A model generated the notes under the pieces. That model did no database searches. It saw only the letters and a list, made by a program, of their open reading frames with translations, and was not told the origin of the DNA. Both the position numbers and the translations under genes were made by a program. A DNA stretch of 64,000 bases from Siphonodentalium dalli (taxonomy: Eukaryota > Mollusca > Scaphopoda > Gadilida > Siphonodentaliidae): NCBI GenBank assembly GCA_032622095.1, contig CP136065.1, forward strand, positions 204,424,618-204,488,617, given 5' to 3'. Positions 22,867 to 62,671 of this stretch are shown here, piece after piece (the stretch's first letter is position 1; each line of letters begins with the position of its first letter).

Positions 22867-22879
22867 AAGATTAGCAAAG

Positions 22880-25850: not shown

Positions 25851-27063
25851 GCCATCCTAACTCGAGACTTGGCCAGTTCGTACTCAAGGTCCGACGAATC
25901 TACCTCATCAGTCATGCTCCCTCTTTCTCGAAGTCCGCTCGTCCACCATATCTATCTCAAAAACATCCTTCTGTGTGTCATCAGGGTAGGAAGACCGTGC
26001 CTCAGGGACAGGAGGTGCCGGACCAGTAGGGGACTGGTCAAAGGGATCGAGGAGCTCCCGCTGTGTCGCGGAGGAAAACTCCCCCGGAGGGACAGCAGGG
26101 GGAGGCTTATCCCCCTGTTTCGCAGCGGAGTCCTCCGCTGGAGTGACAGGGGTCGCTCCCTTCGTGCCTACGGGAGACCGGGTCTCCAGTGAGGGGTCCC
26201 CTGGCGGGGGGGTCCTCGCCGGGGGGTCCCGCCCTGACAGGGACGCCGCGATCTCTTGTGCCGTCGCGGTTGACACAACAACCGGAGGGGGCACAGGAGG
26301 AACAGGAGGGTGAAGCTTACTCCCCTGTCCCCCAGCAGAGTCCTCTGCCGGAGGGTCAGGGGTTTTCCCCAGAACCGCCTTCTCAATCATAGAAACCGGT
26401 GTCACAACTCGAGCGTATGTCCGCGGAGGGGCCCTCCTGGTCCCAGAAGGGTTCTCTCGTTCCTCAGCCTCCCTCCGGCGTCGCGCCACCCTCGTAGGGC
26501 ACTCTGCGTCCTTACTGTGGTGTCCGACGGTCTTACAAGAGAAACACAGGGGCGGCCGCCCAGGAATGAGAACGGGGCAGATGCCCCTCCCCACATTCAA
26601 AAATGGGGCTGCATGTCATGGAAATCAGCCGCTCACTGGTCGCAAACACTGCATGGTCCACGGTGCAGACCGCATCACGGAGGGTATGGATCGTTCCATA
26701 TCCGCAGAGAGCATTCACAAGCACCTTGTTGGAGACGAAATACGGGACCCACAACACCCGTATCTGGAACCGCTTCTCAAAAAAAGCCTTAAAAGACAGA
26801 TCTATGCCAAACTGAGCCGAGTGGATAGGGGCGGACGAAAACATCTCCAGAAATGACACAAAAGAAGATTCACTACGCAAAGTGACGAACCACTGATCCG
26901 GTCTCTCCAGCCGAAAAATGGCATCAATGTTATCTAGCTCGAAACCCGCATCCTTTAGTAACACAGCGAAAACGTCCGGTTTAAGCAGCCGGAAATTCGG
27001 CCCAAAGGCCCGCACCTGAACGGTGCGCCCCGCCCGATCCTCGTAGACGTAGCTGCCGGCCAT
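25850..27063 (-). pseudogene. LINE ORF1, RNA-binding protein (copy E), frameshifted
   Basis: The start chosen is ATG 27063-27061 (MAGSYVYEDR). The first part (to ~26600) has an RRM-like N-terminal domain (IDAIFRLERPDQWFVTL) and a second domain with VLWVPYFVSN and ALCGYGTIHTLRD. A frameshift near 26597 moves the rest to another frame: IPGRPPLCFSC, a zinc knuckle C-x2-C-x4-H-x6-C (CFSCKTVGHHSKDAEC), a basic RRRREAEERENPSG stretch and a proline-rich tail with two AEDSA...QG.K.PP..PP repeats. A second shift near 25906 precedes the acidic end MAPDEEC. ORF1 proteins coat the element RNA. Confidence 0.8.
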
Positions 27064-27137
27064 CCCTGACCGACAGCAACACAAAGGCAATTAAACAAAA
27101 GTAGGGCACGTGGAGACAAACAAAAATCACTTTGAGC

Positions 27138-27161
27138 TTCGCCAAAAGGCCGAGAAGCGAT
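27138..27161 (-). ncRNA. U2 snRNA 5' fragment, upstream of LINE copy E
   Basis: On the minus strand from 27161 the sequence is the canonical U2 start (ATCGCTTCTCGGCCTTTTGG, then C), followed by GAAGCTCAAAGTG instead of TAAGATCAAGTG. The LINE leader begins within the next ~10 nt. The promoter side is intact (PSE-like motif at -49 to -57), but the gene is cut off, so no U2 RNA can be made. Confidence 0.85.
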
Positions 27162-27258
27162 ACCAATTTAGGTTTTCAATTCCAGGTCACTGTTCAAATC
27201 CACGACAGGAAATGGTTTGAATCACCATCAACCAAGTTTCAAAACGAAACCACCAACA
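27162..27258 (-). repeat. U2 upstream region shared with copy D
   Basis: The 97 bp upstream of this U2 5' end are nearly identical to 45240-45336 and then diverge sharply after CACCAACA. They differ from the spacer at 50490-51074 and 57248-57828 apart from the PSE-like motif. Confidence 0.75.
27205..27222 (-). promoter_or_regulatory. PSE-like element of the U2 gene at copy E
   Basis: AAACCATTT on the minus strand (27218-27210) lies 49-57 bp upstream of the U2 start. The same nonamer sits at -48 to -59 in all four U2 5' ends of this window. Animal snRNA promoters have their proximal sequence element near -55. Confidence 0.6.
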
Positions 27259-44107: not shown

Positions 44108-45150
44108 CACACAGACGAGCACTCTTCATCAGGGGCCATCTTAATGCGAGACAAGTTCTGGTGATACTCAATGTCCGATGAATCCAACCCGTCAGAATCA
44201 TGTTCCCTCTTCCGAGAAGTCAGGGCTTCCGTCATGTCGTAATCGAACACATCCTGCTGTGTGTGTGACCCTGCCGCAGGGACAGGAGGTATCGGACCAG
44301 GAGGGGACTGGTCAAAGGTCGCCAGGAGGTCCATCGCCATCACGGAGGATATCTCCTCCGGAGGGGACGATGGGGGAGGCTTACTCACCTGTATCGCAGC
44401 GGAGTCCTCCGCTGGAGTGACGGGGGTCTTCCCCAAAATCACCTTCTCGATCTCTGATACCGGAGTGGCGATGCTGGCGTAGCTCGGCTTCTGGGGAGGG
44501 GTCCTCCTGGTCCCAGAAAGGTTCTCCCTCTTCTCTGCCTCCCTCCGGCGTCGTGCCACCCTCGTCGGGCACTCGGCATCCTTGCTGTGGTGTCCTACGG
44601 CTCGGCACGTGAAGCATAAGGGTGGCCGCCCAGGGATCAGGATGCCCCTACCCACTTACAAAAATGGAGGTATCTGCTGGAATTTCATGAAAGTGAAAGT
44701 CATCGTCACCACCCGCTCACTAGTCACGAATGCAGCCTTGTCTACTTGAACAGTTACATCCCTGAGGGTATGGATAGTGCCATACCCCCTGAGGGCGCGA
44801 ACAATTACCTCGTTAGAAACGAAGTAAGGCACCCATAGCACCCTCATAGTAAATTTCTTTTCAAAGAAAGGTTTGAATTGTAGTTCAATTTCCGAAGTGA
44901 TTGGAGTGAACCCGTTAACACCCGCAGAACTCTCCAGGAAAGCGTGGTGTGCCGGCTCCTTAGAAAAAGTAATGAACCATTGATCCGGCCGTTTCAATCT
45001 GAAAATGGCGTCAATTGAGTCCAGGTCCACCATGGCATCCTTCAGAATCGCCGCAAAGTTGGTCGGCTTTAACAAACAAAAATTCGGCCCAAAGGCCCGC
45101 ATCTCGACGTTGCACCCCGCCCGAAACTCATTAACGTAGCTGCCGGCCAT
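44108..45150 (-). pseudogene. LINE ORF1 (copy D), frameshifted, C-terminus truncated
   Basis: The start is ATG 45150-45148 (MAGSYVNEFR). The first frame has IDAIFRLKRPDQWFITF and VLWVPYFVSNEVIVRALRGY and runs out at 44656. The zinc knuckle C-x2-C-x4-H-x6-C (CFTCRAVGHHSKDAEC) lies in another frame (44655-44108), so there is a shift near 44665. The tail has one AEDSAAIQVSKPPPSSPPEE module and ends in RKREHDSDGLDSSDIEY. The next residues are foreign. Confidence 0.8.
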
Positions 45151-45213
45151 CCCTGACCGACAGCGAGACAAAGGCAATTAGCAAAACTAGGTCACGTGGA
45201 AAAATTTAACAGA
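44108..45213 (-). mobile_element. U2-inserted Tx1-like LINE, copy D (only 5' part)
   Basis: It starts after a U2 5' fragment (45239-45214) and keeps the leader (CACGTGACCTAG) and ORF1; it breaks off near 44108 at the ORF1 C-terminus (MAPDEECSS). ORF2 and the 3' end are absent. As LINE truncation normally removes the 5' end, loss of the 3' part points to a later deletion or rearrangement. Its ORF1 is closest to copy E. Confidence 0.8.
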
Positions 45214-45239
45214 GCTTAGCCAAAAGGCCGAGAAGCGAT
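45214..45239 (-). ncRNA. U2 snRNA 5' fragment, upstream of LINE copy D
   Basis: From 45239 on the minus strand: canonical U2 nt 1-25 (ends GGCTAAG), then the LINE leader. Upstream, the PSE-like AAACCATTT lies at -49 to -57 (45296-45288). The U2 3' part was not found, because the element and its right junction are deleted. Confidence 0.85.
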
Positions 45240-45287
45240 ACCAATTTAGGTTTTCAATTCCAGGTCACTGTTCAAATCCACGACAGG

Positions 45288-45296
45288 AAATGGTTT
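45288..45296 (-). promoter_or_regulatory. PSE-like element of the U2 gene at copy D
   Basis: AAACCATTT at -49 to -57 from the U2 start, within a ~97 bp segment (45240-45336) shared with copy E. Confidence 0.6.
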
Positions 45297-45339
45297 GAAT
45301 CACCATCAACCAAGTTTCAAAACGAAACCACCAACAACA

Positions 45340-45840
45340 GACATCCAAGAAAAACAAACAAAACTTCAAAGTCCAAACCGGTCGAATACCGAAATTCTGG
45401 ACGAAACGACTATCAGTCTGAAGTTTACTTTCGATTTCCATTTCTCAATAAATGTATCTTTTTCCCCACCAATTTGGGACCACTGTTCCAAACGTAGAGT
45501 GAACAACCGTCTGGACGTACACTATTGACTAATCACACCTACATCTACGAAGTACATCAAAGCGTGCGTCTAAAAATAACGCATTACGGCTAATGGCAGG
45601 AAAATAGTATAATTCGAATGTGGCCGCACGGTGGTTAATATTTCAGTTTCGCCAGTGTAGATTGCTTTATGCAGCAGTATGCAGTACCTAAATAACGAAA
45701 TCTTCGTTTTGCAATCCAAGAAATCACTGGGTCTTGAAATTTTCACCGACCGAGCGGGCGGGGGATTAAACGCGCTTTATTATTACCATATAAGTACAAT
45801 AACAACAACGCTCTTTATATGTGCGTTTTGTTAGCTATAT
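45340..45840. other. Unique stretch between LINE copies D and C
   Basis: Nothing recognised. It begins where similarity to the copy E upstream region stops (after CACCAACA) and ends where copy C begins. Confidence 0.4.
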
Positions 45841-45841
45841 G

Positions 45842-48537
45842 TTGAATGTTTGGACAGAAACAGAATAAATTTTCAATAGTTTCAATTTCCATCCTGCACA
45901 AGGGGCATAATTTATAAGTTGTCATGTGGAAGGAATGCAAAAGGTAATTCACTGGCAGAATTTCGTGTATTACACGCCATGTGTCCTTAAGACCATGAGG
46001 TCCTATAAATGAATGGTGTAAATTAGACCAAGTTTTGGCTAAATCATTAGTAGGGTATCTGTTTATGATGAGTGGGGGATGAAGAATTTTGGAAAGAAAT
46101 CCCTGATAAAAAACTTTACACGAAATGTCATTAAATGAAAGATTTGGTTTAATTTCCAAATATATTTTCAAAGCTTTAAGAACAATGCCATAAAATGGTG
46201 GTGGCAATCCCGAAAAGTGGGGTATCAAATTAGAACCAAATTCGGGACGAAATTTACTGAGGGAATGACCTATCCAGTATTTGACGAAACAGCCCCAGCG
46301 AACATCTGGGAACATGATTAAACGTTGCAAGTGCCTCATGTAAAAAGCATTCAGCTTGCTAGGGATGTGAGAAAGTCCTGTCCCGCCACTCAGTTAATCA
46401 CGATAAACTATAAACTGCTTGGCGGGCCAAGGGGTCTTTCTTACCTTCCCACAAAAAGTTAAACATCTTGGAGTCAAACGACTTGTTATATGCACGAGAT
46501 AATGGAATAATGGAACAATAATACCACAATTTCGATAAAGCAAAAGTATTAATTCAGTGTGGTTTTATTAAATGGCGTCATTTTTCTGTCTAAGGCATAA
46601 TGTAATACACTAGATAATTTTTGGAGCAAGTTATGGAAATGACCATCTAAAGAGAACTCCCAACAATTTTCTGATGCGGAACCCATTGTAGGTTAAACGG
46701 TTTGTCAGTGCGACCGCGCCAAGAACCCAGAAAAATACCGGCCGATTTCTGTAGATTTAATTTCGAGCCAGAGGCCTCACCGAATGAAGTGCATAATAAA
46801 AGTAATTTAGCCACGGAGCTAGTTGTAGTAACCACTGCGGTGACATCGTCCGCATATGCAGCGAGCTTCACCGGTTCAGTGCAACAATGAACCGATAAAC
46901 CTACAATCTCCGCATCCGAACGAAGTCTCCGCAAAAAAGAAATAACTTGAAGGCCGAAACCAAAAGCCTGTAATGTCCTAAATAAGTATGAGTGATCAAC
47001 CCTATCAAAAGCTTTCGCTTGATCTAAGCTAATAAAAGCGCATGCAATATTCTTTTGGTTGACATTACGTAACAAATGAGCATTGTAGGTGAAATAAAAT
47101 CAAAAAATGTATAGTAAAATTCACGGCCTAAACCATCATCACCGGGTGACTTGTTGTTTTTCATATCCGAAACCAAAGTTTTTATTTCCTCAATAGTTAT
47201 AGGGGCATCGCATAAGGCGGAGTCAGTTGTAGATAAATGGGGTAAATCAGTGAGACAAGTATCACAAACTGTGTCATCAATTTGCTCAACTGTGAATAAT
47301 ATTCCATAAAACTCTCTAAAATGATGAAGAATATCTTCAGATTTAGTATAAGTATGATTGTCAACAGTAACAGAAGAAATATTCTTTTTAGTGCCACGGT
47401 GGTGCTCCATCCGATGAAAGTGCGGGGAAGTGGATTCCCGAGAATCCAATTCCCGCGCACGAGATCGGATGAAGGACCCACGTTCCATATCTAAATATAT
47501 GTCATGTAATTCTTTACGAATTAGTTTGATCTGATCAGCATAATTACCAGGATTGAATTTTTCAGCTGAACATAAAGAAAAGTATTGATTTTCCAAATCC
47601 CTAATGACTGATTTCTTCTGAAAAGATAACCTCTTACTGTGAGAAATGATGAAAGCCTTTACCCACATCTTGATCCCCTCCCACCAATCAGGAGTGACGG
47701 CATCAGCGGTCACACCTGAAGTGAGAGAGGACCAAAACGAGAGAAAAGCCTTCTGAAAAGATAAGTCGGAAAAAGTATTACAATTCGCTTTCCAATAACC
47801 GCGTCCTGTGGACTGGCATTGGAATCGCTGAATTTGGAATACTATAATATCATGATCAGAAATCCCGGAAACAATTAGGCGAAAAGAGTGAATTGATGAT
47901 AATAATGTAGTAGTTGCATAAAATCGATCGAGCCTAGAAAAACTAGTACCCCTACTCCCAAGTATATTTAATATCATTAGGATTTAATGTCCGAAATATA
48001 TCTTTCAAATGGTAAGTTTCTTTAATTTTGTCCCATTTGCAGGCTACTGCGAGGACCCTATCGTGACCAATTCGATTGAGCATAACGCTTTCTACGAAAT
48101 TATAATCGCCCCCGATAATAATCGGACGCTTAAGATACCAAATGCGGAATTACTCGATCGAAAAAATCACGACTGGGTCCGCCGCTATCATTTGGCGCAT
48201 AAATATTAATTAGGCGCAAAGGTTGATTGTCCAACGTAGCATCTAAAACCACCATACGTCCATCAGTATCAAAAAAGCGCTTATCAATAGTCAGTTCTAA
48301 ATGTTTAGAAATAAGAATGGCTGTGCCACGGGCTGTGTCAGTTCCAAATGACCAATAACCGTCCACATCTAAAGAAGCATTAACAGATGAGGATTCAAGT
48401 TGTCCGGAAATGTGTGTTTCTTGAAGAAATAAAATATGTAAAGAATTCATGTGAATCAGCATTTTAAGAATGCGTTGTTTCCGTTGACAGCTAAGGCCAT
48501 TACAATTGAAGGATGCAAAATTAACAGGCGCCATCAT
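45842..48537 (-). pseudogene. LINE ORF2 (copy C), endonuclease plus RT, multiply deleted
   Basis: It starts MMAPVNFASFNCNGLSCQRK at ATG 48537. The APE motifs LQETH, IYAPND and ISDHD are readable. A one-base insertion near 48133 (CTTAAGATACC; copy A has CTTAGATACC) and another near 47955 break the endonuclease. About 90 residues between ISPT and HLLRNV are deleted near 47090, removing early RT motifs. A second deletion joins FGFG to FLRRLRSD near 46945. The catalytic YADD (in AAYADDVTAVV) survives. Further breaks lie near 46650-46340 before the last frame ending CPLCRMEIET...FCFCPNIQ. Confidence 0.8.
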
Positions 48538-48717
48538 GAAGGTTAATTTTGAGCGCGACGGTACTACAGCTCGATCTAGCTGGACACAACAATACTACAA
48601 TAAAACCAAACAAAATCAAAAAGGCAGCGCGAAGACAATGCCGGTCGACCAACGAACAGCGGATTATCGCTGAACGGCGGCCGCCCAGCAAAGTCGACGC
48701 ACTGTCAACAAACCCTA

Positions 48718-48751
48718 AGAGTGCAGGGTCACCGAGTGCGATGCACTCTGG
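48718..48751 (-). other. Conserved hairpin in the ORF1-ORF2 spacer (copy C)
   Basis: GGTCACCGAGTGCGATGCAC followed by TCTGGTGACC folds into a ~13-bp stem with a CGAT loop. The same sequence is in copies A (61780), B (55282 and 55567) and E (25518), although the flanks differ. Confidence 0.6.
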
Positions 48752-49037
48752 TGACCAAGCACTCGGAAGGCACAGAGAAATAACACTGAACGGACAGCAC
48801 AGCGACAAACTCGACCGAGCAGAGAAAAGCCTAATACGGCTGTAATCTGATCGATCGGGTCTGGCACTACACCGTCCGCACAGAACAAAGAAAAATAAAA
48901 ACACAAAGAATAAGCCTCCACCAAAACACTGGTGGATGATTGCAAGTCCAGGGACGTTCCGCGTTCGGGTTGGGGGTCGATGAAGAAATGAGAATGTCCG
49001 TATAAGAAGAGTCAGTGTTCGTTGTAGATCCATGGAG

Positions 49038-50389
49038 TTACACCATCGAGTCGCACTCCGACGTCACGTACTCCTCGTCTGTCTGGTTGTTGAGGTCGGT
49101 GTAGTTTCGCTTGTAGTCGATGAGGTCGTCTGACGACTCCGAAACAGAGCGTTTCAGCGAATTCACGGGAGGTCTCGTGTCCATGTCCGAAGAAAACAAA
49201 CTTGGAGAATCCGGAAAGAATGGCATTTGGAGGTCTTCCTGTGTCGCGGTGGATAAATCCGCCGGAGGGACAGGGACTTCCCCTGAATATGCCTTCTGCT
49301 TCTCAGCAGTGGTGTCCACCACTGCTGACTCCACAGAAGGGAGCGCACAAACAGGAGCGATGTCGCCATCGCCCTGCTCCCCGGCATCGAGGGATGCCAG
49401 GATAAACTCAATTACCTCCCTCGCCATCATGGAGGAAGGCTCCTCCAGAGGGGACGAGGGCGGAGGCTTATCCCCCTGGTTCGCACCAGGGGGCGCTCCT
49501 AGCGACGACGGAGGCTGCAGCTCCGGTGGGGGGTCCCGCGGAACCTCCTGACCAGGAGGTGTCTCGCCATACAAAGCCAGTAACTCCCCCGCCATCACGG
49601 AGGTGACCACCTCCGGAGGGGACGAGGGGGAGGCTTACTCCCTTGCCCCACAGTAGAGTCCTCTACTGCAGGAACAAGGGGTGCTCCCAGTGACGCCACA
49701 GAAACTCGTGAACCGGCAGCAGCGGCGTACGTCTTCGGTGGGTTCCTCAGGACCCCCGAGGGGTTCTCCCGTTCCTCAGCTGCACGGCGCTCGGCCGCCA
49801 CACGGTTCGGGCACGCCGGTGAAGAGCAATTGTGGCCTAAGCCACGGCACGAGAAACACATCCTCGGCCTCCCCGGGATAACAACGGGACAAAATCCCCA
49901 CTTCCCGTAATTTAGAAAGAAGGGAATCAGGTCGAGGCTTCTCGGGGACACGGACATCTCCACCTGGATGTCCCCCGTGCAGTATCGGTGTCCGTCGATA
50001 ACGTTGGTAGAATCTTTCACAGACATAATCTTCCCATAGGGGCGCAGTGCCCCTAACACAAATTCCCGATTCACATGGTACGGTACCCACATGATCTTCA
50101 CCATCGTCTTCCTCTCCCAGAACGGCTGGAAATTGATGGTAAACTTCATTGTGCCACCGTCCACAGGCATGGCACAAAGTCCTGCCTGATAAAAGTCCTC
50201 CTGCGCCGAAAACACCAAATACCAGACTCCAAAACGCTCCATCCTGTAGAGTGCCTGGATTTTCGACAAGTCCAGTACATCTTTTAACGCGGCCATCAAG
50301 ATCTGCCCCGTCACCAGCCCGCGACTCTCTCCCCTAACATGCATCTGCAGTGTGCGCGCCACACGATCCTCCATAATGTCGGCCACCAT
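49038..50389 (-). pseudogene. LINE ORF1 (copy C), frameshifted
   Basis: ATG 50389-50387 (MVADIMEDRVARTLQ) is taken as the start because it lies in CGGAGCCATGG and matches copies D/E. Domains: RRM-like IQALYRMERFGVWYLVF; VKIMWVPYHVNREFVLGALR with PYGKIMSVKD; zinc knuckle CFSCRGLGHNCSSPAC (C-x2-C-x4-H-x6-C); basic RRAAEERENPSG; then proline-rich repeats of the type QGDKPPPSSPLEEPSS. A frame break near 49610 lies in the repeat region. The tail is acidic and ends TDEEYVTSECDSMV, as in copy A. Confidence 0.8.
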
Positions 50390-50462
50390 GGCTCCGTCCC
50401 TGGCGGACAAACAAAAACAAAGTGCCAATCAAAAGAATTAGGTCACGTGACAAATATCGACG

Positions 50463-50489
50463 ATCTTTGCCAAAAGGCCGAGAAGCGAT
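50463..50489 (-). ncRNA. U2 snRNA 5' fragment, upstream of LINE copy C
   Basis: From 50489: U2 nt 1-20 exact, then CAAAGATC (canonical CTAAGATC), then the LINE leader. The corresponding 3' part is lost with the truncated end of copy C. PSE-like AAACCATTT at 50545-50537 (-48 to -56). Confidence 0.9.
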
Positions 50490-51074
50490 GCCGATTTTTC
50501 GCGAAAAAAAATCGGGCTATTCAGCAGGAACCGTGAAAATGGTTTTAATAAAAGGTGTGTCGTCATCAAATCCCAGGAATCGACATGAATCCTGAAAAAG
50601 AAAGAAATATGCATGAGAAGCGAAAATGGCGAAATTCCGGTGTTTTGCATGAAGCATGTGTTCGGATTTTGTTAATATTTAGAATAAACACAAGAATTTC
50701 GTCATTTTTTTCGTGACTCCATTTGAGACGTACGACGTACGTTCTTCTGACTCTATTTAATACTGTACTGTTGATCCATTATAAGCTCATAATCGAGTCG
50801 TGCAAACCAAAATGTTGCGAAAGATGCTGAATGTCGCGAAATCTGAACCTTACTTTTTTGCAATAGTTTTCTTTGCATTTGTGAAATTACGTTAAGGGTG
50901 ATTTAGAATAAACGTTGTTCATTGTAATATGAATGCAATGCAAACGCTCTTTATCAACAATGTGTGGTATCTGTTCTTATCAGCATGACATCTAAACATT
51001 CCAAATGAAACTCTGTTCATTATCAGAAGGTACAGAGAGGTTGGAGGGGCAACTAATTTTAGATTATTTAAGAA
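50490..51074 (-). promoter_or_regulatory. U2 array spacer/promoter, copy 1
   Basis: 585 bp between the U2 3' part at 51230-51075 and the next U2 start at 50489. It is almost identical to 57248-57828 (581 bp); the few differences include GTCGAG/GTG near the PSE and a short ATTGTTCATTG insertion. Such sameness between neighbouring spacers is the mark of a tandem array homogenised by recombination. It contains the PSE-like motif near -52 and a GCGAAAAAAAATCGG hairpin just upstream of the start. Confidence 0.8.
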
Positions 51075-51230
51075 TGGGCCGATCCCGGAGGTACTGCAAT
51101 ACCGGGCCAACCCGTGGCGAGGTTAGAGCAAGCTCTAGGCCACTCGCCTACAGTCAAAAATCAGTTTAATATCGAAGTCCCCATTTGGGGACGTATCAGA
51201 TATTAAGCTGATAAGAACAGATACTACACT
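51075..51230 (-). ncRNA. U2 snRNA 3' part, downstream of LINE copy B
   Basis: Minus strand from 51230: (A)GTGTAGTATCTGTTCTTATC, stem IIa (ATCAGCTTAATATCTGAT), stem IIb (GTCCCCAAATGGGGAC), an Sm site ATTTTTG (51161-51155), stem III around AGAGCTTGCTCT and the 3' stem-loop with CCCGGTATTGCAGTACCTCC. This is U2 from nt ~31 to the end, about 156 nt, giving a normal ~187 nt together with the missing start. Residues between the Sm site and stem IV differ from the vertebrate RNA but keep pairing. The LINE A-tract abuts it directly. Confidence 0.92.
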
Positions 51231-51632
51231 TTTTTTTTTTTTATAAAAAATTTTATTCAGATAATACGAAATAATAATACAGGTTTTACAAATAATAACG
51301 ATGACAGAAATACAAATACAGAATAATACGGCGAAATAACGAAATAAATGGAAAGCTGGCTAACTGCCAGCACCGTACATGCCCCCGCTCCGATTAAAAA
51401 CAGACGAGTCTGCGATATCACAGGTTTGGAGCGAGGGCGAGAGAGCAAAAACGAGTTGGGGGATAATTCCTACCCACCCAACTCCCCACGAGAACGAAGA
51501 CAAAATACAGAGTTACCCATCCCACGCCGCAGAGACGATAAGCGTCCTGCGACTTAGGATGGATAACTCCACGGGAAAGTTAAATGGCGATAGAGTTATC
51601 GGAAATCTTCTTCTTAAAGGTACTTATACTTA

Positions 51633-54600
51633 TCAGAATGTAAATTCCACTTTGTCGTTCGAAACGCGACAGATATCAGCCGTTACCAGCCAGTATCTGT
51701 CGAATTCCGAACCGTGGAGGCGCTCGTGATCAGCGAGTATGCGAATACGCAACCGATTAAGATAATCAACAATAAGTTTTTGTGGGTGAGTGGGGCCTTT
51801 CCAAAATTTGGCCTCGTTACGAAAATACCAAATGGTGCTAATTGCTTCTGTGAGAAGAACCAGAATAGTGGCTTTGTGATGCCTGTCAAGATTTATGGGT
51901 AACTGTAAAAAGCGGACTGTTTTGGCGAGAGGTCGAATGACTGTTCTGGGCGTTATGTTATTGACCCACTGAAATATAAGTCGCCATAAAGGTTGGACCT
52001 TGGCGCAAAAACAAAATAAATGTTCGTGAGATTCATCTTCTGCACGACAAAGAGGGCATACTTCATAACGTAAAAATTTTAAATGATGAAGTAGTTGATT
52101 GACTGGCAAAATGTCATGCGCCAGTTTCCATATGTCTCTCCTCGCGACGGGGCCGATAAAGGGATTATGTTTATTGTTCCAAGTCGTGCCAAAGTGAATA
52201 AGGGGATATTTGTTAATTACAATAGGGGGCTTGACAATTGCACTTAGAAAATCCAAGTAAAATTGTTTCGTGGTGAAACCATCAAATTTAAAGTCGGGGC
52301 GGATTTTTAAATATTTTCTAAGGGCCGCCATTACCTTAGTATAAAAAGGGGGTGGTTGTTCTGAACAATGGGGAATTAAATTAGAACCAAATTCAGGCCT
52401 AAAACGGACCAGCGATAGACTTGTCCAATATGTGACAAAACAACCCCATCGGATATTGGGGAATTTCATGAACCTTTGCAGATGTTGCATGTAAAATGCG
52501 TCAAGTTTGGAAGGAATATGAGAAAGCCCGGTCCCTCCCCGCAGTTTGCTTTCGCAAACCGCGAGGCGGGACAGGGGTTCCTGCTTATTTTCCCAAATAA
52601 ATTTATGCATCTTTGAATTAAAGGAACATAGATATGCAGCAGACAAAGGGATAACAGAACAGTAATACCAGATTTTCGACAAGGCATAAGTATTAACAAG
52701 GACGGTGCGGGAGAAGGGGGTCAGTTTACGATCAAATGAATTTTGGAGTACACCAGAAAATTTTGAAAGAAGATTGTGAAAATGACCATCGAGTGTAATA
52801 TTATTTCCATACTGAATTCCAAGAAGTTTTTGATGAGGGACCCAGCGTAAGCCATGTGGCTCGTCAGTGCGATCCCTCCAAGAGTCTAAAAATATACCGG
52901 CTGATTTGTTCAGATTTAATTTAGCGCCGGAAGCTTTACCAAAAAGGGCGCAGTTAGAGAAGATATGTTCAATGGAGTTGTCATTAGTGACTATCGTGGT
53001 GACGTCATCCGCATACGCAGCTAGCTTTATCGGTTCAGTGGAACACTGAACCGACAAACCCAAAATCTGCGTATCCGAACGGAATTTAATCAGAAGGGGC
53101 TATAAGCAGAGGACGTACAAAAGTGGGGAAATACTGCATCCTTGGTGCACTGATCGCGTGACGGGAAAAACGTCAGAAATAAACTGATTTACAATAACAG
53201 ACGAAGTGATGTTATTGTAAAAAAGTTTAATCCATGAAATAAATTTGGGGCCGAACCCATATGCCGAAAGGGCACGAAAAAGATAAATGTGATCAACCCG
53301 ATCGAAAGCTTTAGCTTGATCGAGGGAAATGAGGGCACACCTAATATTTTTATGATTTACATAGTCAATGAGATTCCGCAATAAATGGGCATTATCCAAA
53401 ATTGACCTTCCGGGAACGCCGCAAGTTTGGTCAGTATGCACTAAAGTGCCAATGACGTCCCGGAGGCGGTGTGTAAAAATTTTCGAAAGAATTTTATAGT
53501 CATAATTCAGTAGACTGATAGGGCGATAATTTGAAACGAGTTCGGGGTGCTGGGGGTCTTTCAAAAGTAAAACAATAAGGGACTGTCGCTGCGAGGCTGA
53601 CAGCTGACCTGAAAGAAAACAATAATTGTATAAATTTTGTAGTGTGGGCGCGATGTAATCAAGGAATGTAAAATAAAATTCCTTGCCCAACCCATCACTA
53701 CCCGGAGACTTATTATTCTTCATTTGCGATACCGCAGATTTAATTTCATCTATGGATATAGGGGCTTCGCATAAAGTTTGGTCAGAAGACGATAGTTGGG
53801 GCAAGTCAGTTAAAAATTCTGAACAAGCAGAATTATCAATAGGCTCAGCAGAGAAAAGGTGAGAATAAAATTCCCTAAATTGAATTAAAATATCACGAGA
53901 ATCTGTGTAGGTATGATCATCTACAGTAACAGATTTAATAGTTTTACTGGAACCACGATGATTCTCCATCCGATGGAAGTGCGGGGAAGTGGATTCCTGA
54001 GAATCCAACTCCCGCGCACGAGATCGGATGAAGGACCCGTGTTCCAGCTCCAAATATAAATCGCGAAGTTGCGTGCGCAAAGCTGTAATTTGTTCTGAGT
54101 AATTACCAGGATTGAGTTTTTCCGCTGAGCAAAGGTCAAAATATTGTCGTTCAAGACTACGGATCGTAGATTTATGTGAAAAAGAAAGCCGTTTGCTATG
54201 TGAAGTGATAAAGGACTTCACCTCCCCCTTGACCCCCTCCCACCATTCGGACGTGACGGCAGAGGCGGTCACGCCCGACGTGAGAGAGGACCAAAAAGAG
54301 ACAAAGTCTTTCTGGAAAGTGCTATCGCTAAAGTTTTAGCATTTGCTTTCCAGTAACCGCGTCCGAAAGATTGACAATTAAATTTCTTTATGCGGAACGA
54401 AACGGCATCATGATCCGATAAACAGCCTACAATTTGTTTAAATGAAGAAACAGACGATAACAAGGACTCGGAGACGTAGAACCGGTCGATCCGAGAAGCA
54501 CTACCTCCCCGAGTCCAGGTATACTGTGTTGCTGTGGGTTCGAGATGGCGAAATATATCTTTCAAATGATAATTAGTTCGAATTGTAGCCCATTTCCGGG

Positions 54601-55093
54601 ACACAGGGAGGACCCGGTCGTGACCAATCCGATCGAGCGATACATCATCAACAAAATTAAAATCGCCCCCGACTATGGTCGGACGCACAGAGACCAAGTG
54701 AGGCACCACCCGGTCGAAAAAGTCACGACGAGGCCCCCCGCTGTCGTTGGGACCATAAACATTAATTAGCCGAAGTGGTTGATCATAAAAAATTATGTCA
54801 AGAACGACCATGCGTCCATCTGTATCAAAAAACTGCTTAGTAACTTCAATATTTAAATGAGGAGATATGAGGATAGCAGCACCGCGGGCAGTGTTGGTAC
54901 CGTATGAATAAAAACCTTTCATGTCAAGTGTAGCATTTAAAGACAACGCATCTAGCTGGCCTAAAATATGCGTTTCTTGCAAAAATATGATATCGATCGA
55001 TTGGAAGCGAATAAGCATTTTCAACATGCGCTGTTTTTGTGTACTGCCCAGTCCATTGCAGTTAAGGGACGCTATGTGTAAATTCGCCATCAT
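51633..55093 (-). pseudogene. LINE ORF2 (copy B), APE endonuclease and reverse transcriptase, ~1150 codons
   Basis: Start ATG 55093 (MMANLHIASLNCNGL). The endonuclease (to ~residue 235) has N11/N13, E40 in FLQETH, YGPN (113-116), GGDFN (142-146) and SDHD (226-229), all APE-family active-site motifs. A one-base loss near 54335 shifts the frame (KANAKT|...). RT follows: NKSPGSDGL, YRPISLLNYDYKI, LDQAKAFDRVDH, VHQGCSISPLLYVLCL, then a GAG-to-TAG nonsense at 53102-53100, then AAYADDVTTIV (catalytic YADD at 53015-53004). The C-terminus has CPLCRAEDESHEHLFCFC, the zinc motif usual for the L1/Tx1 group. The rest is intact to the stop at 51633. Confidence 0.88.
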
Positions 55094-55823
55094 GCTAGCA
55101 ATTTAAGGGAAAAGAGACCACAGCAACAGCAGCGAAACTAAATAAACGAATACAAATAATAAAGAGCGTTTGGTGAACTCGGGCACCAACTCGGTCGACC
55201 GGTGAACCGCGGCGTACCGCTGCACACCAGCCGACAAAGAAGGCCCCCGCGCTAACCAAAACAAACTGACAGAAGAGTGCAGGGTCACCGAGTGCTGTAC
55301 ACTCGGATGACCCAATGCAAATAAGGATGGAAAATCAAGAAGGTGCGGATGGCATAGCGACAAACGCGATCGATCAGAAAACAGTCTAAAACGCCCGTAA
55401 TCTGGTCGACCGCACTCGTCGACACACCACCCACACACAATAGAGATTAAGGTAAACAAAGAGACAGAGCGACAACGACGCCGGTCAGTCAGCGAACAGC
55501 GGATTACCGGTGAACGAGAACCGCCCGGCGAAGTCGACGCACTGTCAACAATGCATAAGAGTGCAGGGTCACCGAGTGCGATAATACACTCTGGTGACCA
55601 AGCACTAAAGAGACAAAATAAAATAACGTTGAGCGGACAACACAGCGACCTGGTACGTCGATACGCTGTCCACCCAGAACAATAGAAAATAAAATAACTT
55701 CGCCAAAACACTGGCGAATAGAAGGGAAATCAGGGACGGTCCGTGGTCGGGGTGGGGGTGGTTGTAGAATAAAGAACGTCCGGGTACACAGTTCCAAGAA
55801 TAGTTGTACTAACATTTAGTGAA
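55094..55823 (-). other. ORF1-ORF2 spacer of copy B with the hairpin in duplicate
   Basis: GGTCACCGAGTGC...GATGACC (~55282-55312) and GGTCACCGAGTGCGATAATA...GGTGACC (~55567-55599) are two versions of the conserved hairpin, each preceded by a GAGTGCAG segment. The spacer is ~230 bp longer than in A and C because of this duplication. No conserved protein is seen. Confidence 0.55.
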
Positions 55824-57137
55824 TCACATCTCCGACAGCACCGAATCATGGTCTGAAGGACCACCCTCCTCATCCGGACCAGCATTCACATCTGCCAATG
55901 TCTTCTTGTAGGTTTCTTCTTCATTCGATGAAGACGAAGCGGATCTCTTCAGGGGGTTCCGCGTCCCCGACGTGTCCATGGTAGAAAAGAGTGACGAACT
56001 GGAGGAAAGTCCAAAATCAGAGGCCTGGACGGCAGCCTGTGTCGCGGTAGACAAACCTACCGGACCAGGGCTGACCTGGCTGGCCTCCCGGGAGGGAGGG
56101 TGCGCATCAACAGGGTGCGAGGCACCCTGCTCGGAATCGAGGGATTCCGGGACTACCGTAACTACCCCCAGTGTCTCGGAGGAAAGCTCCTCCGGAGGGA
56201 CTGAGGGGGGAGGCTTATCCCCCTGTTTCACAGCAGAGTCCTCTGCTGGAGTGACAGGGGTCGCTCCCAACGTACTAACAGGGGTGATGTCCCCCTGCTG
56301 CTGGTCGGCCGAAGATGCCGCTATCGCACTCAGTGTCGCAGTGGAGATGGGCTCCACTGGAGGGACTGAAGGGGAAGACTTATCCCCCTGTTTTGCAACA
56401 GGGGTTGCTTCCTTCGAAAACACAACAAACTCGTTTTCCGCTATCTGAATCGATGTCCCACCGAGCGCCTCAACATAACTGGACCTCGGTGTGGGCTGCC
56501 TTCTCGTACCGGACACGAGGTCGCGCTCCTTCCTTCGCTGCTCCACCCTCCTGGGACAGAGCTCCCAGGTCCGGGTGTGCCCCACTCCCCTGCACGCAAA
56601 ACACAAAGGCGGTTTACCCTAAATCACGATGGGGATGAACTGTCCATTTGCTGTGTCTATTGAATACGGCATGGAATCGATGCGGTTGCTATTAACAGTC
56701 ATATGTACCAATTTTGTTCCATTGGCTACGCTGCATCCCTTCACATAACTTGTATCATCCCGAATGGAATGAATCTCGCCATAATTCCCGAGGACACGGG
56801 AATAGACCTCGGATCTAATGAAGAACGGAACCCATAACAGCTTGATCACAATTTCCTTCTTAAAAAACGGGGATAGCTGCATCCCGATGCCAGCCTCTGG
56901 AAACTCCAAAGTGCGAATTAACTCATAAGTGTCCATGTGCTGGATGTGGTCAAAGGTAAGATACCACGTGGTGGGCCTTGAAAGTCTGAACAAAGCATCC
57001 ACCACGCCCATATCGATCTCCGTTCCGAGCAGGTCGCCCATCTTCTCGGTAGTCATCTTATACTTGTTCGGTCCATCCACCTTAATTTCTATGGTCCTGG
57101 CCGCAAGAAACTCATCGTAGAGCCCGTCAGCCGCCAT
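55824..57137 (-). pseudogene. LINE ORF1 (copy B), one in-frame stop
   Basis: Start ATG 57137 (MAADGLYDEFLAARTIEIK). RRM-like part VDALFRLSRPTTWYLTFDHI, second domain VIKLLWVPFFIRSEVYSRVL and NYGEIHSIRD. A TAG at 56621-56619 replaces the proline codon of the conserved IPG(R/K)P motif; the same frame goes on with GKPPLCFACRGVGHTRTWEL C (zinc knuckle C-x2-C-x4-H-x6-C), a basic RRVEQRRKERD stretch, then three proline-rich modules (AKQGDKSSPSVPPVEPIST, VKQGDKPPPSVPPEELSSET and a weaker third) and an acidic Ser-rich tail ending DSVLSEM. Divergent from A/C/D/E in the first half. Confidence 0.85.
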
Positions 57138-57222
57138 AACTGCGTCCCTGGCTGGCGGGAAAAAACTGGATCAATTAGTGAAAGTAGGTCACGATAATTA
57201 ATCAAGTCAGAAATCACTTTGG

Positions 57223-57247
57223 TCTAGCCAAAAGGCCGAGAAGCGAT
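57223..57247 (-). ncRNA. U2 snRNA 5' fragment, upstream of LINE copy B
   Basis: From 57247: U2 nt 1-23 exact (ends GGCTA), then GACCAAAGTG, which can be read as a changed GATCAAGTG. If so U2 continues to nt ~33 and overlaps the 3' side by 3-4 nt (a short target duplication); if not, a few target bases were lost. Confidence 0.9.
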
Positions 57248-57828
57248 GCCGATTTTTCGCGAAAAAAAATCGGGCCATTCAGCAGGAACCGTCGAGAAAA
57301 TGGTTTTAATAAAAGGTGTGTCGTCATCAAATCCCAGGAATCGACATGAATCCTGAAAAAGAAAGAAATATGCATGAGAAGCGAAAATGGCGAAATTCCG
57401 GTGTTTTGCATGAAGCATGTGTTCGGATTTTGTTAACATTTAGAATAAACACAAGAATTTCGTCATTTTTTTCGTGACTCCATTTGAGACGTACGACGTA
57501 CGTTCTTCTGACTCTATTTAATACTGTACTGTTGATCCATTATAAGCTCATAATCGAGTCGTGCAAACCAAAATGTTGCGAAAGATGCTGAATGTCGCGA
57601 AATCTGAACCTTACTTTTTTGCAATAGTTTTCTTTGCATTTGTGAAATTACGTTAAGGGTGATTTAGAATAAACGTTGTAATATGAATGCAATGCAAACG
57701 CTCTTTATCAACAATGTGTGGTATCTGTTCTTATCAGCATGACATCTAAACATTCCAAATGAAACTCTGTTCATTATCAGAAGGTACAGAGAGGTTGGAG
57801 GGGCAACTAATTTTAGATTATTTAAGAA
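57248..57828 (-). promoter_or_regulatory. U2 array spacer/promoter, copy 2
   Basis: 581 bp, near-identical to 50490-51074. PSE-like AAACCATTT at 57306-57298 (-51 to -59). It separates the U2 gene split by LINE A from the one split by LINE B, and both genes point the same way. Confidence 0.8.
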
Positions 57829-57984
57829 TGGGCCGATCCCGGAGGTACTGCAATACCGGGCCAACCCGTGGCGAGGTTAGAGCAAGCTCTAGGCCACTCG
57901 CCTACAGTCAAAAATCAGTTTAATATCGAAGTCCCCATTTGGGGACGTATCAGATATTAAGCTGATAAGAACAGATACTACACT
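57829..57984 (-). ncRNA. U2 snRNA 3' part, downstream of LINE copy A
   Basis: Same sequence and length as 51075-51230: GTGTAGTATCTG at the LINE border, Sm site ATTTTTG and the 3' stem-loop with GGTATTGCAGTACC. It is the 3' remainder of the U2 gene hit by copy A. Confidence 0.92.
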
Positions 57985-58353
57985 TTTTTTTCTTTTTAAA
58001 AAAAATAAGTTTATTCGATGATACTAAAGATTACATGGATATACATGGATACAAGGTAACGGTTACAAAAGAGTTCAGTAATATAATGAAAGGAATGCAA
58101 AGCTGGCAATCTGCCAGCACTGTACCGGTCCCCGCTCCGAATAAAAAGACGAATCTGCGGTATCACAGGTTGGAGCGGAGACCTTACAAACAAAACAAGT
58201 TTGGTAATAAATATTACCCACCCAACTCCCCTCGAAAAATTGTTGGATAGAGTTACCGATCCCGCATCTCGGAGACACAAAGTTCTCCGCGATGCAGGAA
58301 GGATAACTCCAACCAATCCGACGAAAAGAAGGCCGACTATAGAGTGCTCGGTA

Positions 58354-61300
58354 TTAGAAATTAAAGGAAACCTTGTTGTCGGCCGAAATATGACAGATAT
58401 CATCCGTGACCGTCCAATACCTGTCAAAGTCCGGCCGAGATAGGCGACAGAAATCCGCTAAAATGCGAATCCTGAGCCGATTCAAAAAGTTAACAATTAA
58501 TGTGTTCACATGCGTGCTACCTTTGTGAACTTTGGCCTCGTTCTTGAGGTACCAAATGGCGCTAATGGATTGCGTGATAAGGACCAATGTAATTGCACGA
58601 TGGTGTCTACTGATGTTGGTAGGAAGCTGTAAAAACCGGATAGTTGCACATACATGCTGAATTTCAGTATTGGGATTGAAATTATTAACCCAACTCAATA
58701 TCAGACGCCATAGTAACTGAATATTTGGACAAAAGCAGAATAAATGTTCAATTGTTTCAGTTTCCTTCTTGCATAAGGGGCATAATTTATAGGTTGTCAT
58801 ATGGAAGGAATGTAACAGATAATTCACTGGCAGAATTTCATGGATGACACGCCAGGTGTCCTTACGACCGTGAGGTCCTATAAATGAATGGTGTAAATTG
58901 GACCAAGTTTTGGCGAAATCAATGGTAGGATATCTGTTTATGATGCGTGGGGAATGAATAATTTTTGAAAGAAACCCTTGATAAAAAACCTTACAAGAAA
59001 TATCATTAAATGAAAGATTTGGTTTTATTGCCAAGTATATTTTCAAGGCTTTAAGAACGCTGGCATAAAATGGTGGTGGCAATTCCGAAGAATGGGGTAT
59101 CAAATTTGAACCAAATTCTGGACGAAATTTACTGAGGGAATGACCGATCCAATATTTAACGAAACATCCCCAGCGGACATTTGGAAACATAATTAACCGT
59201 TGCAAGTGCCTCATGTAAAAGGCATTCAGCTTGCTAGGGATGTGAGAAAGTCCTGTTCCGCCACTCAGTTTATCGTGATAAACTGCTTGGCGGGCCAAGG
59301 GGTCTTTCTTACCTTCCCACAAAAAGTTAAACATTTTAGAATCAAAATACTTATTGTATACACAGGATAATGGGATGATGGAGCAATAGTACCACAATTT
59401 CGACAATGCAAAGGTATTAATAAGTGTGATTCGATTAAATGGTGACAATTTTCTGTCAAAAGCATTGCGTAATACACTGGAAAAATTTTGGAGCAAGTTA
59501 TGGAAATGACCATCCAAATATGTCATTTCCAAACTGAACTCCAACACTGAACCGATAAACCTACAATCTCCGAAGCCGCCGCAAAAAGGGTTCTAAACAG
59601 AGAACATATAAGAGAGGGGATATACTGCATCCCTGTCTCACAGAGCGTGTCACGGGGAAGGGGTCAGAAATGAATTGATTAACAATCACAGAAGAAGTAA
59701 CATCTGTATAAAATAGTCTGACCCAAGAAATAAATTTAGGGCCGAAACCAAAAGCCTGTAATGTCCGAAATAAGTATGTGTGATCAACTCTATCAAAAGC
59801 TTTCGCTTGATCTAAGCTAATAAAAGCGCATGGGATATTCTTTTGGTTGAGTTGACATAGTCAACCACGTTACGTAATAAATGAGCATTGTCAAGAATGG
59901 TGCGCCCCGGAACACCACAAGTTTGATCCGGGTGCACCAAACTCGCAATGACATTCCGTAAACGGTTCGCAAATATTTTGGACAAAATTTTATAGTCATA
60001 ATTCAATAGGCTGATGGGACGATAATTAGAAACTAATTCAGGATGATTGTGGTCTTTTAGAAGTAAAATAATAAGGGACTGTCTTTGTGACTTTGTTAAA
60101 CTACCAGAATTAAAACAGTTATTGTATAACTGAAGAAGTGTCGGTGAAATCAAATCCAAAAATGTATAATAAAATTCACGGCCTAAACCGTCATCACCAG
60201 GTGATTTATTATTTTTCATGTCAGACACTGAAGTTTTTATTTCCTCGATAGTTATGGGAGCATCGCATAAGGCGGAGTCAGTTACAGATAAATGGGGTAA
60301 ATCAGTGAGAAAAGTATCACAAATTGTGTCATCAATTTGCTCAACTGAAAATAATTGTTCATAAAAATCCTTAAAGTGATGAAGAATATCTTCAGATTTA
60401 GTATACATATGGTTGTCAACAATGACAGAAGAAATGTTCTTTTTAGAGCCACGGTGATGCTCCATCCGATGAAAGTGCGGGGAAGTGGATTCCTGAGAAT
60501 CCAATTCCCGCGCACGAGATCGGATGAAGGACCCACGTTCCATATCGAAATACAAGTCATGTAATTTTTTACGAATCGCTTTAATTTGATCAGCATAATT
60601 ACCAGGATTAAATTTTTCAGCTGAACATAAGGAAAAGTATTGATTTTCTAAATCCCTAATTACTGATTTATTCTGGAAAGATAACCTCTTACTGTGAGAA
60701 ATGATAAAGGATTTTATCTGCATTTTGACCCTCTCCCACCAATCGGGCGTGACTGCATCAGCAGTCACACCTGAAGTGAGAGAGGACCAAAACGAGAGAA
60801 AAGCCTTCTGAAAAGATAAGTCTGAAAAAGTATTGCAATTCGCCTTCCAATAACCACGTCCTGTGGACTGGCATTGGAATTGCTGAATTTGAAATACGAT
60901 AATGTCATGATCAGAAATCCCGGAAACAATTTGACGGAAAGAATGAATTGATGATAATAATGTAGCAGTTGCATAAAACCGATCGAGTCTAGAAAAACTA
61001 GTACCCCTGCTCAAAGTATATTTAATCTCATTGGGATTTAAAGTACGAAATACAGCTTTCAAATGATAAGTGTCTTTGATTTTGTCCCATTTACGGGCTA
61101 CCGCAAGGACCCTATCGTGACCAATTCGATCGAGCAAAACGCTTTCTACAAAATTATAATCGCCCCCGATAATAATCGGACGCTTAGATACCAAATGCGG
61201 AATTACTTGATCGAAGAAATCACGACGGGGTCCGCCGCTATCATTTGGCGCATAAATATTAATTAGGCGCAAAGGTTGATTATCTAGTGTAACATCTAAA

Positions 61301-61590
61301 ACCACCATACGTCCATCAGTATCAAAAAAGCGCTTGTCAATAGTCAGCTCTAAATGTTTAGAAATAAGAATGGCTGTGCCACGGGTTATGTCAGTTCCAA
61401 ATGACCAATAACCGTCCACATCTAAAGAAGCATTTACAGATGAGGATTCAAGTTGTCCGGAAATGTGTGTTTCTTGAAGAAATAAAATATGTAAAGAATT
61501 CATGTGAATCAGCATTTTAAGAATGCGTTGCTTCCGTTGACAGCTAAGGCCATTACAATTGAAGGATGCAAAATTAACAGGCGCCATCAT
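58354..61590 (-). pseudogene. LINE ORF2 (copy A), endonuclease intact, RT active site deleted
   Basis: Start ATG 61590 (MMAPVNFASFNCNGLSCQRK). The endonuclease is uninterrupted with FLQETH, IYAPND, GGDYN and SDHD. The frame stays open through NKSPGDDGL and YRPISLLNYDYKI to about 59855, where extra bases (GTCAACTCAACC against GTCAACC) shift it. VRQGCSISPLLYVLCLEPFL then reads in another frame. Near 59555 about 225 bp are deleted, joining LSVQ to LGVQFG and removing YADD. The C-terminal 390 residues (59547-58354) are intact, with CPLCKKETETIEHLFCFC, ending DNKVSFNF. Confidence 0.85.
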
Positions 61591-62088
61591 GACGGTTAAT
61601 TTTGTGCGCGACGGTACTACAGCTCGATCTAGCTGGACACAACAATACCACAATAAAACCAAACAAAATCAAAAAGGCAGCGCGAAGACAATGCCGGTCG
61701 ACCAACGAACAGCGGATTATCGCTGAACGGCGGCCGCCCAGCAAAGTCGACGCACTGTCAACAAACCCTAAGAGTGCAGGGTCACCGAGTGCGATGCACT
61801 CTGGTGACCAAGCACTCGGAAGGCACAGAGAAATAACACTGAACGGACAGCACAGCGACAAACTCGACCGAGCAGAGAAAAGCCTAATACGGCTGTAATC
61901 TGATCGATCGGGTCTGGCACTACACTGTCCGCACAGAACAAAGAAAAATAAAAACAGAGAATAATCCTCCACCAAAACACTGGTGGATGAGTGCAAGTCT
62001 AGGGACGTTCCGCGGTCGGGTTGGGGGTCGGTGAAGAATAGAGAATGTCCGTATAAGAAAAGTCAGTGTTCGTTGTGAATCCATTAAG
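61591..62088 (-). other. ORF1-ORF2 spacer of copy A with conserved hairpin
   Basis: 498 bp, nearly the same as in copy C. It contains GGTCACCGAGTGCGATGCAC + TCTGGTGACC (61780-61809). Open frames on both strands repeat between A and C only because the DNA is nearly identical. Confidence 0.55.
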
Positions 62089-62671
62089 TTACACCATCGA
62101 GTCGCACTCCGACGTCACGTACTCCTCGTCGGTCCTGTTGTTGAGGTTGGCGTAGTTCCTCTTGTAGTCGGCGAACTCTTTGAACTCTTCGGACGACTCG
62201 GAAACAGAGCGCTTCAGCAAATTCACGGGAGGTCTCGTGTCCATGTCCGAGAACAAACTTGGAGAATCCTCAAAAAATGGATTCAGGAGGCCTTCCTTTG
62301 TCGCGGTGGATAAATCCACCGGAGGGACAGGGAGTTCCCCTGAATCTGCCTTCTGCTTCTCAGCAGTGGTGTCCACCACTGCTGACTCCATCGCCCTGCT
62401 CCCTGGCATCGAGGGATCCAGGATGAAATCCATTACCTCCCTCGCCATCATGGAGGAAGGCTCCCCCAGAGGGGACGAGGGCGGAGGCTTATCCCCCTGG
62501 TTTGCACCAGGGGGCGCTCCTAGCGACAACGAAGGAGGTGTCTCACCAAATGATGCCAATAATTCCCCCGCCATCACGGAGGAGTCCTCTACTGCAGGGA
62601 CAAGGGGTGCTCCCAGTGACGCCACAGAAACTCTCAAACCGGCAGCAGCGGCGTACGACTTCGGTGGGTTT
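62089..62671 (-). pseudogene. LINE ORF1 C-terminal part (copy A)
   Basis: Only the linker and tail remain: VASLGAPLVPAVEDSSVMAG, NQGDKPPPSSPLGEPSSMMA, and the end TDEEYVTSECDSMV. Compared with copy C it lacks one proline-rich module and a stretch around the EQGDGDIAPV repeat, so module number varies even within a subfamily. The RNA-binding domains and zinc knuckle are gone. Confidence 0.8.

What the first reader, a model, noticed from the sequence alone, without database searches (positions are those of the whole stretch)
44108..62671. A tandem U2 snRNA array invaded by APE-type LINEs at one exact position
Seen: U2 5' ends (ATCGCTTCTCGGCCTTTTGG) at 57247, 50489 and 45239, and U2 3' parts starting GTGTAGTATC at 57984 and 51230, each joined to a LINE 5' or 3' end. 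Two spacers of 581 and 585 bp are near-identical, so the units belong to one array. Every U2 gene visible is split at nt ~30/31. Known: Keno (Tx1 clade, APE endonuclease) and Utopia (R2-type, restriction-like endonuclease) target U2 genes. The ORF2 here has APE motifs and a two-ORF layout, so it fits Keno and not Utopia. Inference: a mollusc Keno-like lineage; insertion removes the GUAGUA branch-site region from the RNA.
Basis: partly seen in the sequence, partly recalled or inferred. Interest (0 to 1): 0.92.

Follow-up and report, generated by a model that had tools for sequence, protein, structure and literature searches.

The report
Jumping genes filling every U2 gene
In what looks like a mollusc genome, every U2 splicing-RNA gene that we could read in one stretch of chromosome is cut in two at nearly the same spot by LINE-type jumping genes, a large and clear case of a known habit of such elements that hints at how they may start their own RNA from the gene they break.

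Summary
The window has four, not three, U2 5' ends, each running into a LINE, and two U2 3' halves (nt 31-191), each preceded by a LINE poly(A) tail. In 344 kb read around it there are 16 U2 5' ends; 16 of 16 are interrupted after nt 20-30 and no intact gene was seen. 6 of 6 LINE 3' ends found by a U2-independent motif are followed by U2 nt 31 onwards. Neighbouring units hold different LINE families, so insertion recurred. The elements are APE-type LINEs; their nearest named relatives are limpet proteins. A 36%-identical relative on a lucinid-clam contig also lies between U2 parts. Two new points: nt 21-30 of the U2 leader follows the LINE family, not the target, so the leader is probably carried by the LINE RNA, perhaps started at the U2 promoter; and a second, related LINE family joins U2 at nt 35/36. 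Keno and Utopia are known U2-targeting LINEs, so the kind is known; the 3' junction here lies about 8 nt upstream of the reported Keno one. Kinship with Keno and the genome-wide count of intact U2 genes could not be tested.

The parts
57986..62670 (-). LINE A, 5' end lost; ORF2 in pieces (59812-61668 endonuclease + start of RT; 58354-59592 C-terminal part with zf-RVT)
57823..57985 (-). U2 3' half, nt (29/30)31-191, joined to LINE A poly(A)
   Evidence: Rfam U2 144.7 bits over 58012-57823; 100% over 163 nt with the halves at 51231 and 118332
57248..57822 (-). type-1 U2 spacer, with the U2 promoter of the next unit (AAACCATTT at about -57, read by eye)
   Evidence: 98% to 50490-51068, 95% to 117584-118169
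57228..57247 (-). U2 5' part nt 1-20 (nt 21-23 also as in U2)
51230..57227 (-). LINE B, about 6.0 kb, the only copy in the window with a U2 5' part and a complete U2 3' half on its two sides; ORF2 damaged by a frameshift and one TAG
54269..55102 (-). LINE B APE-type endonuclease reading frame
   Evidence: PF03372 E 7e-17
51633..54335 (-). LINE B reverse transcriptase and C-terminal zinc-binding part, one stop codon inside
   Evidence: PF00078 E 4.6e-23, PF13966 E 7.5e-8; read through the stop for searches only
51069..51231 (-). U2 3' half nt (29/30)31-191, joined to LINE B poly(A)
   Evidence: Rfam U2 144.6 bits
50490..51068 (-). type-1 U2 spacer
50470..50489 (-). U2 5' part nt 1-20, then leader CAAAGATC
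45843..50469 (-). LINE C, same subfamily as A (82% by RT amino acids), 3' end lost
45240..45839 (-). type-2 upstream flank of a U2 gene
   Evidence: 90.7% to the flank of 116114 over 611 columns; -100..-1 99.3% among three units
45220..45239 (-). U2 5' part nt 1-20, then leader CTAAGCTC
44108..45219 (-). LINE D, 5' end and ORF1 part only
27162..27258 (-). type-2 U2 promoter flank (97 bp, 100% to that of 45239)
27142..27161 (-).
23742..27141 (-). LINE E: ORF1 and endonuclease parts, reverse transcriptase mostly lost, own 3' UTR and poly(A)
23731..23741 (-). U2 nt 31-41 between LINE E and the 5' end of a second LINE family (X), which runs on below 23731

Best explanation
A U2 snRNA gene array invaded again and again, at one narrow position, by several families of APE-type, Keno-like LINEs. 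Shown: U2 genes are cut, with nt 1-20 or more upstream and nt 31 onwards downstream of the LINE, same orientation, no visible target-site duplication, and no intact gene seen in 344 kb. Inferred mechanism: the LINE RNA is started at the U2 promoter and so begins with U2 nt 1 to about 30. The APE domain nicks the lower strand at or near nt 30/31. The poly(A) end is reverse transcribed onto that nick. The U2 leader at the cDNA end pairs with the upstream U2 half and joins there, near nt 20, which would give full-length 5' ends and copy the element's own version of nt 21-30 into the target. Each insertion parts the promoter and 5' end from the branch-site pairing region and so should kill that U2 copy. 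Later unequal exchange duplicates and breaks units. The confidence given is for the shown part; I put the RNA-borne U2 leader at about 0.6, the U2-promoter start at about 0.5 and the nick at 30/31 rather than 38/39 at about 0.5.
For: 16 of 16 U2 5' ends in 344 kb are interrupted. 14 of these 16 run into a LINE 5' end by motif or alignment, a fifteenth (117583) only by a short stretch before the ORF1 start, and 206892 into nothing recognised. 6 of 6 LINE 3' ends found by a 3'-UTR motif are followed by U2 nt 31 onwards (264 kb; no further one in the next 80 kb). 11 of 13 hits of a LINE 5' motif lie just after a U2 5' part (10 of 11, 1 of 2). Sister units 57247 and 50489 have 98.0% identical upstream flanks over 603 columns but different LINE families. 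LINEs 116114 and 50489 are 91.2% identical over 1467 columns, lie behind unrelated flank types, and share the leader CAAAGATC. An independent relative on a MAG contig of a lucinid symbiont (L001) shows LINE-poly(A)-U2-spacer-U2 nt 1-30. In three type-1 units the U2 halves are 100% identical against 94.0% and 93.7% in the two spacer stretches after them; in three type-2 units -100..-1 is 99.3% against 74-95% further up, as if the genes had been kept intact until insertion.
Against: Transcription from the U2 promoter and the joining step are inferred, with no RNA data. All ORF2s read are damaged, so activity is unproven. 7 of 16 nt 1-20 parts carry changes. In type-1 units the promoter stretch (96.0%) is less conserved than the spacer just before it (98.4% and 100%), and the U2 fragment at 107701 has changes. 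Two of 13 LINE 5' motif hits are not at U2 (-58375 and 173642; they look like chance). Copies without a 3' end (C, the one from 116114, the one from 242721) and an inverted copy at 132541-134613, which stops about 170 nt short of the 3' end, say nothing on the 3' site. Shared leader variants could come from gene conversion. The true nick could be nt 38/39, as in Keno. No tree with Keno was possible.
Confidence: 0.85

Rival explanations
1. Ordinary Keno at the canonical Keno/Utopia position (nt 38/39): the element RNA ends in poly(A)-GUGUAGUA copied from the U2 gene that it was transcribed through, and the nick is the known one.
For: Reported Keno 3' flank TCTGTTCTTATC and Utopia flank from nt 39. 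The lucinid relative L001 and family X join at nt 35/36, so junctions vary upstream of a shared nt 39.
Against: All six LINE 3' ends here begin at nt 31, one with a substitution. The best-preserved leader has U2 nt 1-30 and then LINE sequence (207809), which together fit a clean 30/31 joint.
Confidence: 0.35
2. One or few insertions, multiplied by unequal crossing-over of the array.
For: Units 242721 and 149867 agree in LINE (97.6% over 1477 columns) and flank (97.1% over 244), so array duplication does happen.
Against: Sister units with 96-98% identical flanks carry LINEs that are 75% identical or of different families (57247/149867, 57247/50489). The same LINE subfamily lies behind unrelated flank types (116114/50489).
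Confidence: 0.05
3. Family-specific leaders arose by gene conversion among LINE copies in the array, not by being carried in the RNA.
For: Array copies exchange and break (truncated and fused units).
Against: For 116114 and 75574 against 50489, which share a leader behind unrelated flank types, the exchange would have to end within the 20 bp of U2 nt 1-20.
Confidence: 0.25
4. Assembly artefact: collapsed or misjoined repeats.
For: Repetitive region; 100 N in 344 kb.
Against: Units differ from one another in LINE and spacer, the 3' joint repeats in 6 of 6 cases, and an unrelated assembly (L001) shows the same arrangement.
Confidence: 0.03

Closest known systems
Keno (Tx1-clade, APE-type LINEs of U2 genes; frogs, fish, lancelet, hydra per PMC4640811)
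   Same: APE endonuclease; inserted in U2 genes, which the insertion breaks
   Different: 3' flank starts at nt 31 here and about nt 39 in the Keno account read (PMC6136364, passages); kinship with Keno not tested; molluscs are not in the list of hosts given in the passage read
Utopia (restriction-like endonuclease, U2 genes)
   Same: U2 target; several families kept side by side in one array (oomycetes); tandem insertion recorded
   Different: Utopia has one protein with a C-terminal restriction-like endonuclease; here an N-terminal APE domain
R2/R1 in 28S rRNA genes (recalled, no call)
   Same: co-transcription with the target gene as a way to get a promoter and 5' target sequence
   Different: host gene here is an snRNA gene with an external promoter

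Membership tests
Keno | APE-type endonuclease before a LINE reverse transcriptase | tested here: met
   PF03372 and PF00078 in LINE A and, in adjoining frames, in B; PF03372 in E
Keno | insertion in U2 snRNA genes | tested here: met
Keno | 3' flank begins at TCTGTTCTTATC (about nt 39) | tested here: inconclusive
   flank begins at nt 31 in 6 of 6; nt 31-38 could be RNA-borne or target
Keno | groups with Keno in an RT tree | not testable with these tools
   no Keno sequence was found among what the tools returned; nearest named relatives are Patella proteins
Tx1 clade | RT phylogeny within Tx1 | tested here: inconclusive
   a Takifugu protein named Transposon TX1 ORF 2 is a hit, E 2.8e-25; no reference tree
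Utopia | C-terminal restriction-like endonuclease, no APE | tested here: not met
   N-terminal APE domain; only zf-RVT matched in the C-terminal part by Pfam at E <= 0.001

The most novel reading that the evidence does not exclude
A whole U2 locus has become a LINE launch pad: the LINE RNA is a U2-promoter transcript whose U2 leader is inherited with the element and used as the homology that finishes integration, with at least two related LINE families sharing the locus at offset positions (nt 31 and nt 35/36), while the host's working U2 genes must lie elsewhere.
Probability: 0.35. Interest if true: 0.72.

Novelty: new variant of a known kind. Interest (0 to 1): 0.56.

Why it matters
Low-copy, essential snRNA genes are a poor target on paper, and how U2-specific LINEs persist and get a promoter is open. 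Here 16 interrupted units can be lined up, and they show that the 5' leader follows the element and not the target. That makes the U2-promoter and homology-joining model directly testable, with lucinid and limpet relatives as comparisons.

Tried and rejected
A genome-wide count of intact and filled U2 genes: not answered in 26 tries. Scans of viral contigs (5 of 8 used: two for ORF2 relatives; three for U2 patterns) gave nothing. U2 in 7 further MAG genomes: 0 of 7, with no control ringing, so this shows little. Reading LINE E's poly(A)-GTGTAGTATCT as proof that the LINE carries GTGTAGTA was dropped after the next sequence proved to be another LINE (X) that itself sits behind U2-like sequence. 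A likeness of some leaders to the U2 Sm region (E 3.6) was set aside as chance. The idea that the LINE at 124165 is intact was dropped: its ORF2 is frameshifted. Literature on Keno in molluscs: one search listed one paper, on mites; one search listed 20 of 2,373, none holding the word Keno; the words mollusc and oyster do not occur in the main text of PMC4640811.

Full report
Numbers above 64000 or below 1 are window numbering continued into the flanks (C5 position minus 204424617). The window lies in a 2.23-Gb assembly of 9 contigs, on contig C5. U2 numbering follows the conserved animal U2 sequence (recalled, consistent with Rfam).

What is in the window. Four perfect U2 nt 1-20 stretches lie on the minus strand at 57247, 50489, 45239 and 27161, with none expected by chance. 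Two Rfam U2 hits of 144.7 and 144.6 bits cover nt 31-191; the model's first 30 positions are filled by A-rich LINE tail with broken pairs. Between them lie LINE bodies with APE endonuclease, reverse transcriptase and zf-RVT domains, in two subfamilies (A and C 82% by RT amino acids; B 61-68% to them). Every ORF2 that I read is damaged.

What is around it. I tiled 200 kb of flank, 100 kb on each side, then 40 kb and 40 kb to the right: 344 kb with the window. A search for U2 nt 5-20 with up to two changes gives 16 hits, all on the minus strand, and none continues as U2 beyond nt 30. Of 36 BLAST pieces at E <= 10, three span nt 24-40: one degenerate U2 joined to LINE X on the plus strand (111637), one LINE tail and one apparent chance match; none is an intact gene. 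Complete U2 3' halves lie at 118330, 57983 and 51229, identical over 163 nt including the shared AA. A damaged half lies at 199091 (+, nt 35-119) and a fragment at 107701 (nt 130-191).

Specificity tested from the LINE side. A motif from the LINE 3' UTR (up to four changes), searched without reference to U2, gives six 3' ends in 264 kb and none in the next 80 kb; all six are followed by poly(A) and U2 nt 31 onwards (one, 98516, reads GAAAGTGTATTATCTG). Three continue as full U2, three as U2 to nt 41-54 and then the 5' end of LINE X. A LINE 5' motif gives 13 hits in 344 kb: 11 follow a U2 5' part; two, at -58375 and 173642, do not and look like chance. Copies that lost their 3' end (C, the ones from 116114 and 242721) and an inverted copy at 132541-134613 (+), which stops about 170 nt short of the 3' end, are not informative there.

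Independent insertions. 57247 and 50489 share 98.0% of 603 columns upstream but carry different LINE families; 149867 and 57247 share 96.4% of 247 columns of flank and 75.4% of LINE. 116114 and 50489 share 91.2% of LINE over 1467 columns behind unrelated flanks. 242721 and 149867 look like one unit duplicated (97.6% and 97.1%), so the 16 are not 16 events.

The leader. Nt 1-20 are unchanged in 9 of 16 copies. Nt 21-30 are unchanged in 1 of 16 (207809) and otherwise follow the LINE subfamily: CAAAGATC in 242721, 149867, 116114, 107063, 75574 and 50489; CGAAGCTCAA in 124165 and 27161; CTAGACCAA in 184103 and 57247; the other five differ singly. Because the first set spans both flank types, the simplest reading is that this stretch travels in the LINE RNA. 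14 of 16 copies start at a LINE 5' end by motif or alignment, 117583 only by a short stretch before ORF1, and 206892 not recognisably, so 5' truncation is rare here. Both facts fit an RNA started at the U2 promoter and a 5' joint made through U2 homology; both steps are inference.

Constraint before insertion. In three type-1 units the U2 halves are 100% identical; the spacer stretches in order are 94.0, 93.7, 98.4 and 100%, and -100..-1 is 96.0%, so the type-1 promoter does not stand out. With the unit at 107063 added, U2 130-191 is 97.6% and the spacer stretches are 87.2, 88.6, 96.7 and 97.8%, the promoter 97.0%. In three type-2 units -100..-1 is 99.3% against 74.0, 84.5 and 95.0% further up, and U2 1-20 is 93.3%. 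The U2 3' halves and the type-2 promoters thus seem to have been kept until the LINEs came. Both promoter types carry AAACCATTT about 57 bp before the start, read by eye as a PSE-like element.

Relatives. The RT search gave 1679 proteins at E <= 0.001, of which the best 120 were listed. The nearest named are Patella caerulea (41-42%) and Pinctada (38%). A tree of 215 of 252 rows (two array elements, from 149867 and 116114, were among those dropped for short coverage) puts seven array elements together (support 1.0), next to Patella (0.958). The one scan of genome contigs gave 13 loci; one, L001 from a MAG of a symbiont of the lucinid clam genus Taylorina, carries a 36%-identical RT, a poly(A) tail joined to U2 at nt 35/36, a full U2 3' part, a spacer and U2 nt 1-30, after which the contig ends with one more base. 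U2 parts were found in 1 of the 13 loci. Three mussel-symbiont contigs with visible LINE poly(A) ends, 28-31% identical, are not at U2. L001 is not a close sister of the window elements (common clade of 62 tips, support 0.624), so shared ancestry of the U2 habit is open.

Family X. Five X 5' ends found by motif in 304 kb (136448, 111225, 98349, 23729 minus and 111666 plus) lie behind U2-like sequence ending ATCT or running further; a more diverged X stretch at 22871 has only ATCT before it. Both X 3' ends found (111301 minus, 199024 plus) end in A's and GTATCT; 111301/111225 is X behind X. Its ORF1 resembles that of the main LINEs (20-30% identity, best E 3e-10; a short X peptide against one ORF1 gave nothing). 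Searches with the main LINE's ORF2 and a Patella ORF2 found no RT for X where looked.

Known and new. Keno and Utopia are known to insert in U2 genes, with the U2 3' flank from about nt 39 (PMC4640811: abstract, passages and section 6; PMC6136364: passages; PMC3706591: one passage). I saw no report of such elements in molluscs in the listings. I therefore call this a Keno-like variant and do not file it as Keno.

Noticed in passing
23731 and below (-), flank 136448, 111225, 98349 (-), 111666 (+), 111301 (-), 199024 (+): A second LINE family (X) with a related ORF1 also abuts U2: 5' ends behind U2-like sequence to about nt 41, 3' ends joined at nt 35/36, once in tandem with itself.
   Followed up: partly
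57716-57747 and 50962-50993 (+); also 118057 and 107533 in the flank: The four complete type-1 spacers each hold an inverted copy (87.5-88.2%) of U2 from nt 31 to 62-64, beginning at nt 31, the LINE junction; unexplained.
   Followed up: no
L001 (JAHXIV010000038.1): A contig filed under a bacterial symbiont genome carries U2 and a U2-inserted LINE, so it is most likely host (lucinid clam) DNA.
   Followed up: yes
27312-28990 (-): Two overlapping ORFs (273 and 293 aa), the downstream one ending in a C2H2-like motif (read by eye), no Pfam match at E <= 0.001, just upstream of the type-2 U2 promoter.
   Followed up: no
884-2256: Tandem repeats with periods of about 122 to 226 bp.
   Followed up: no
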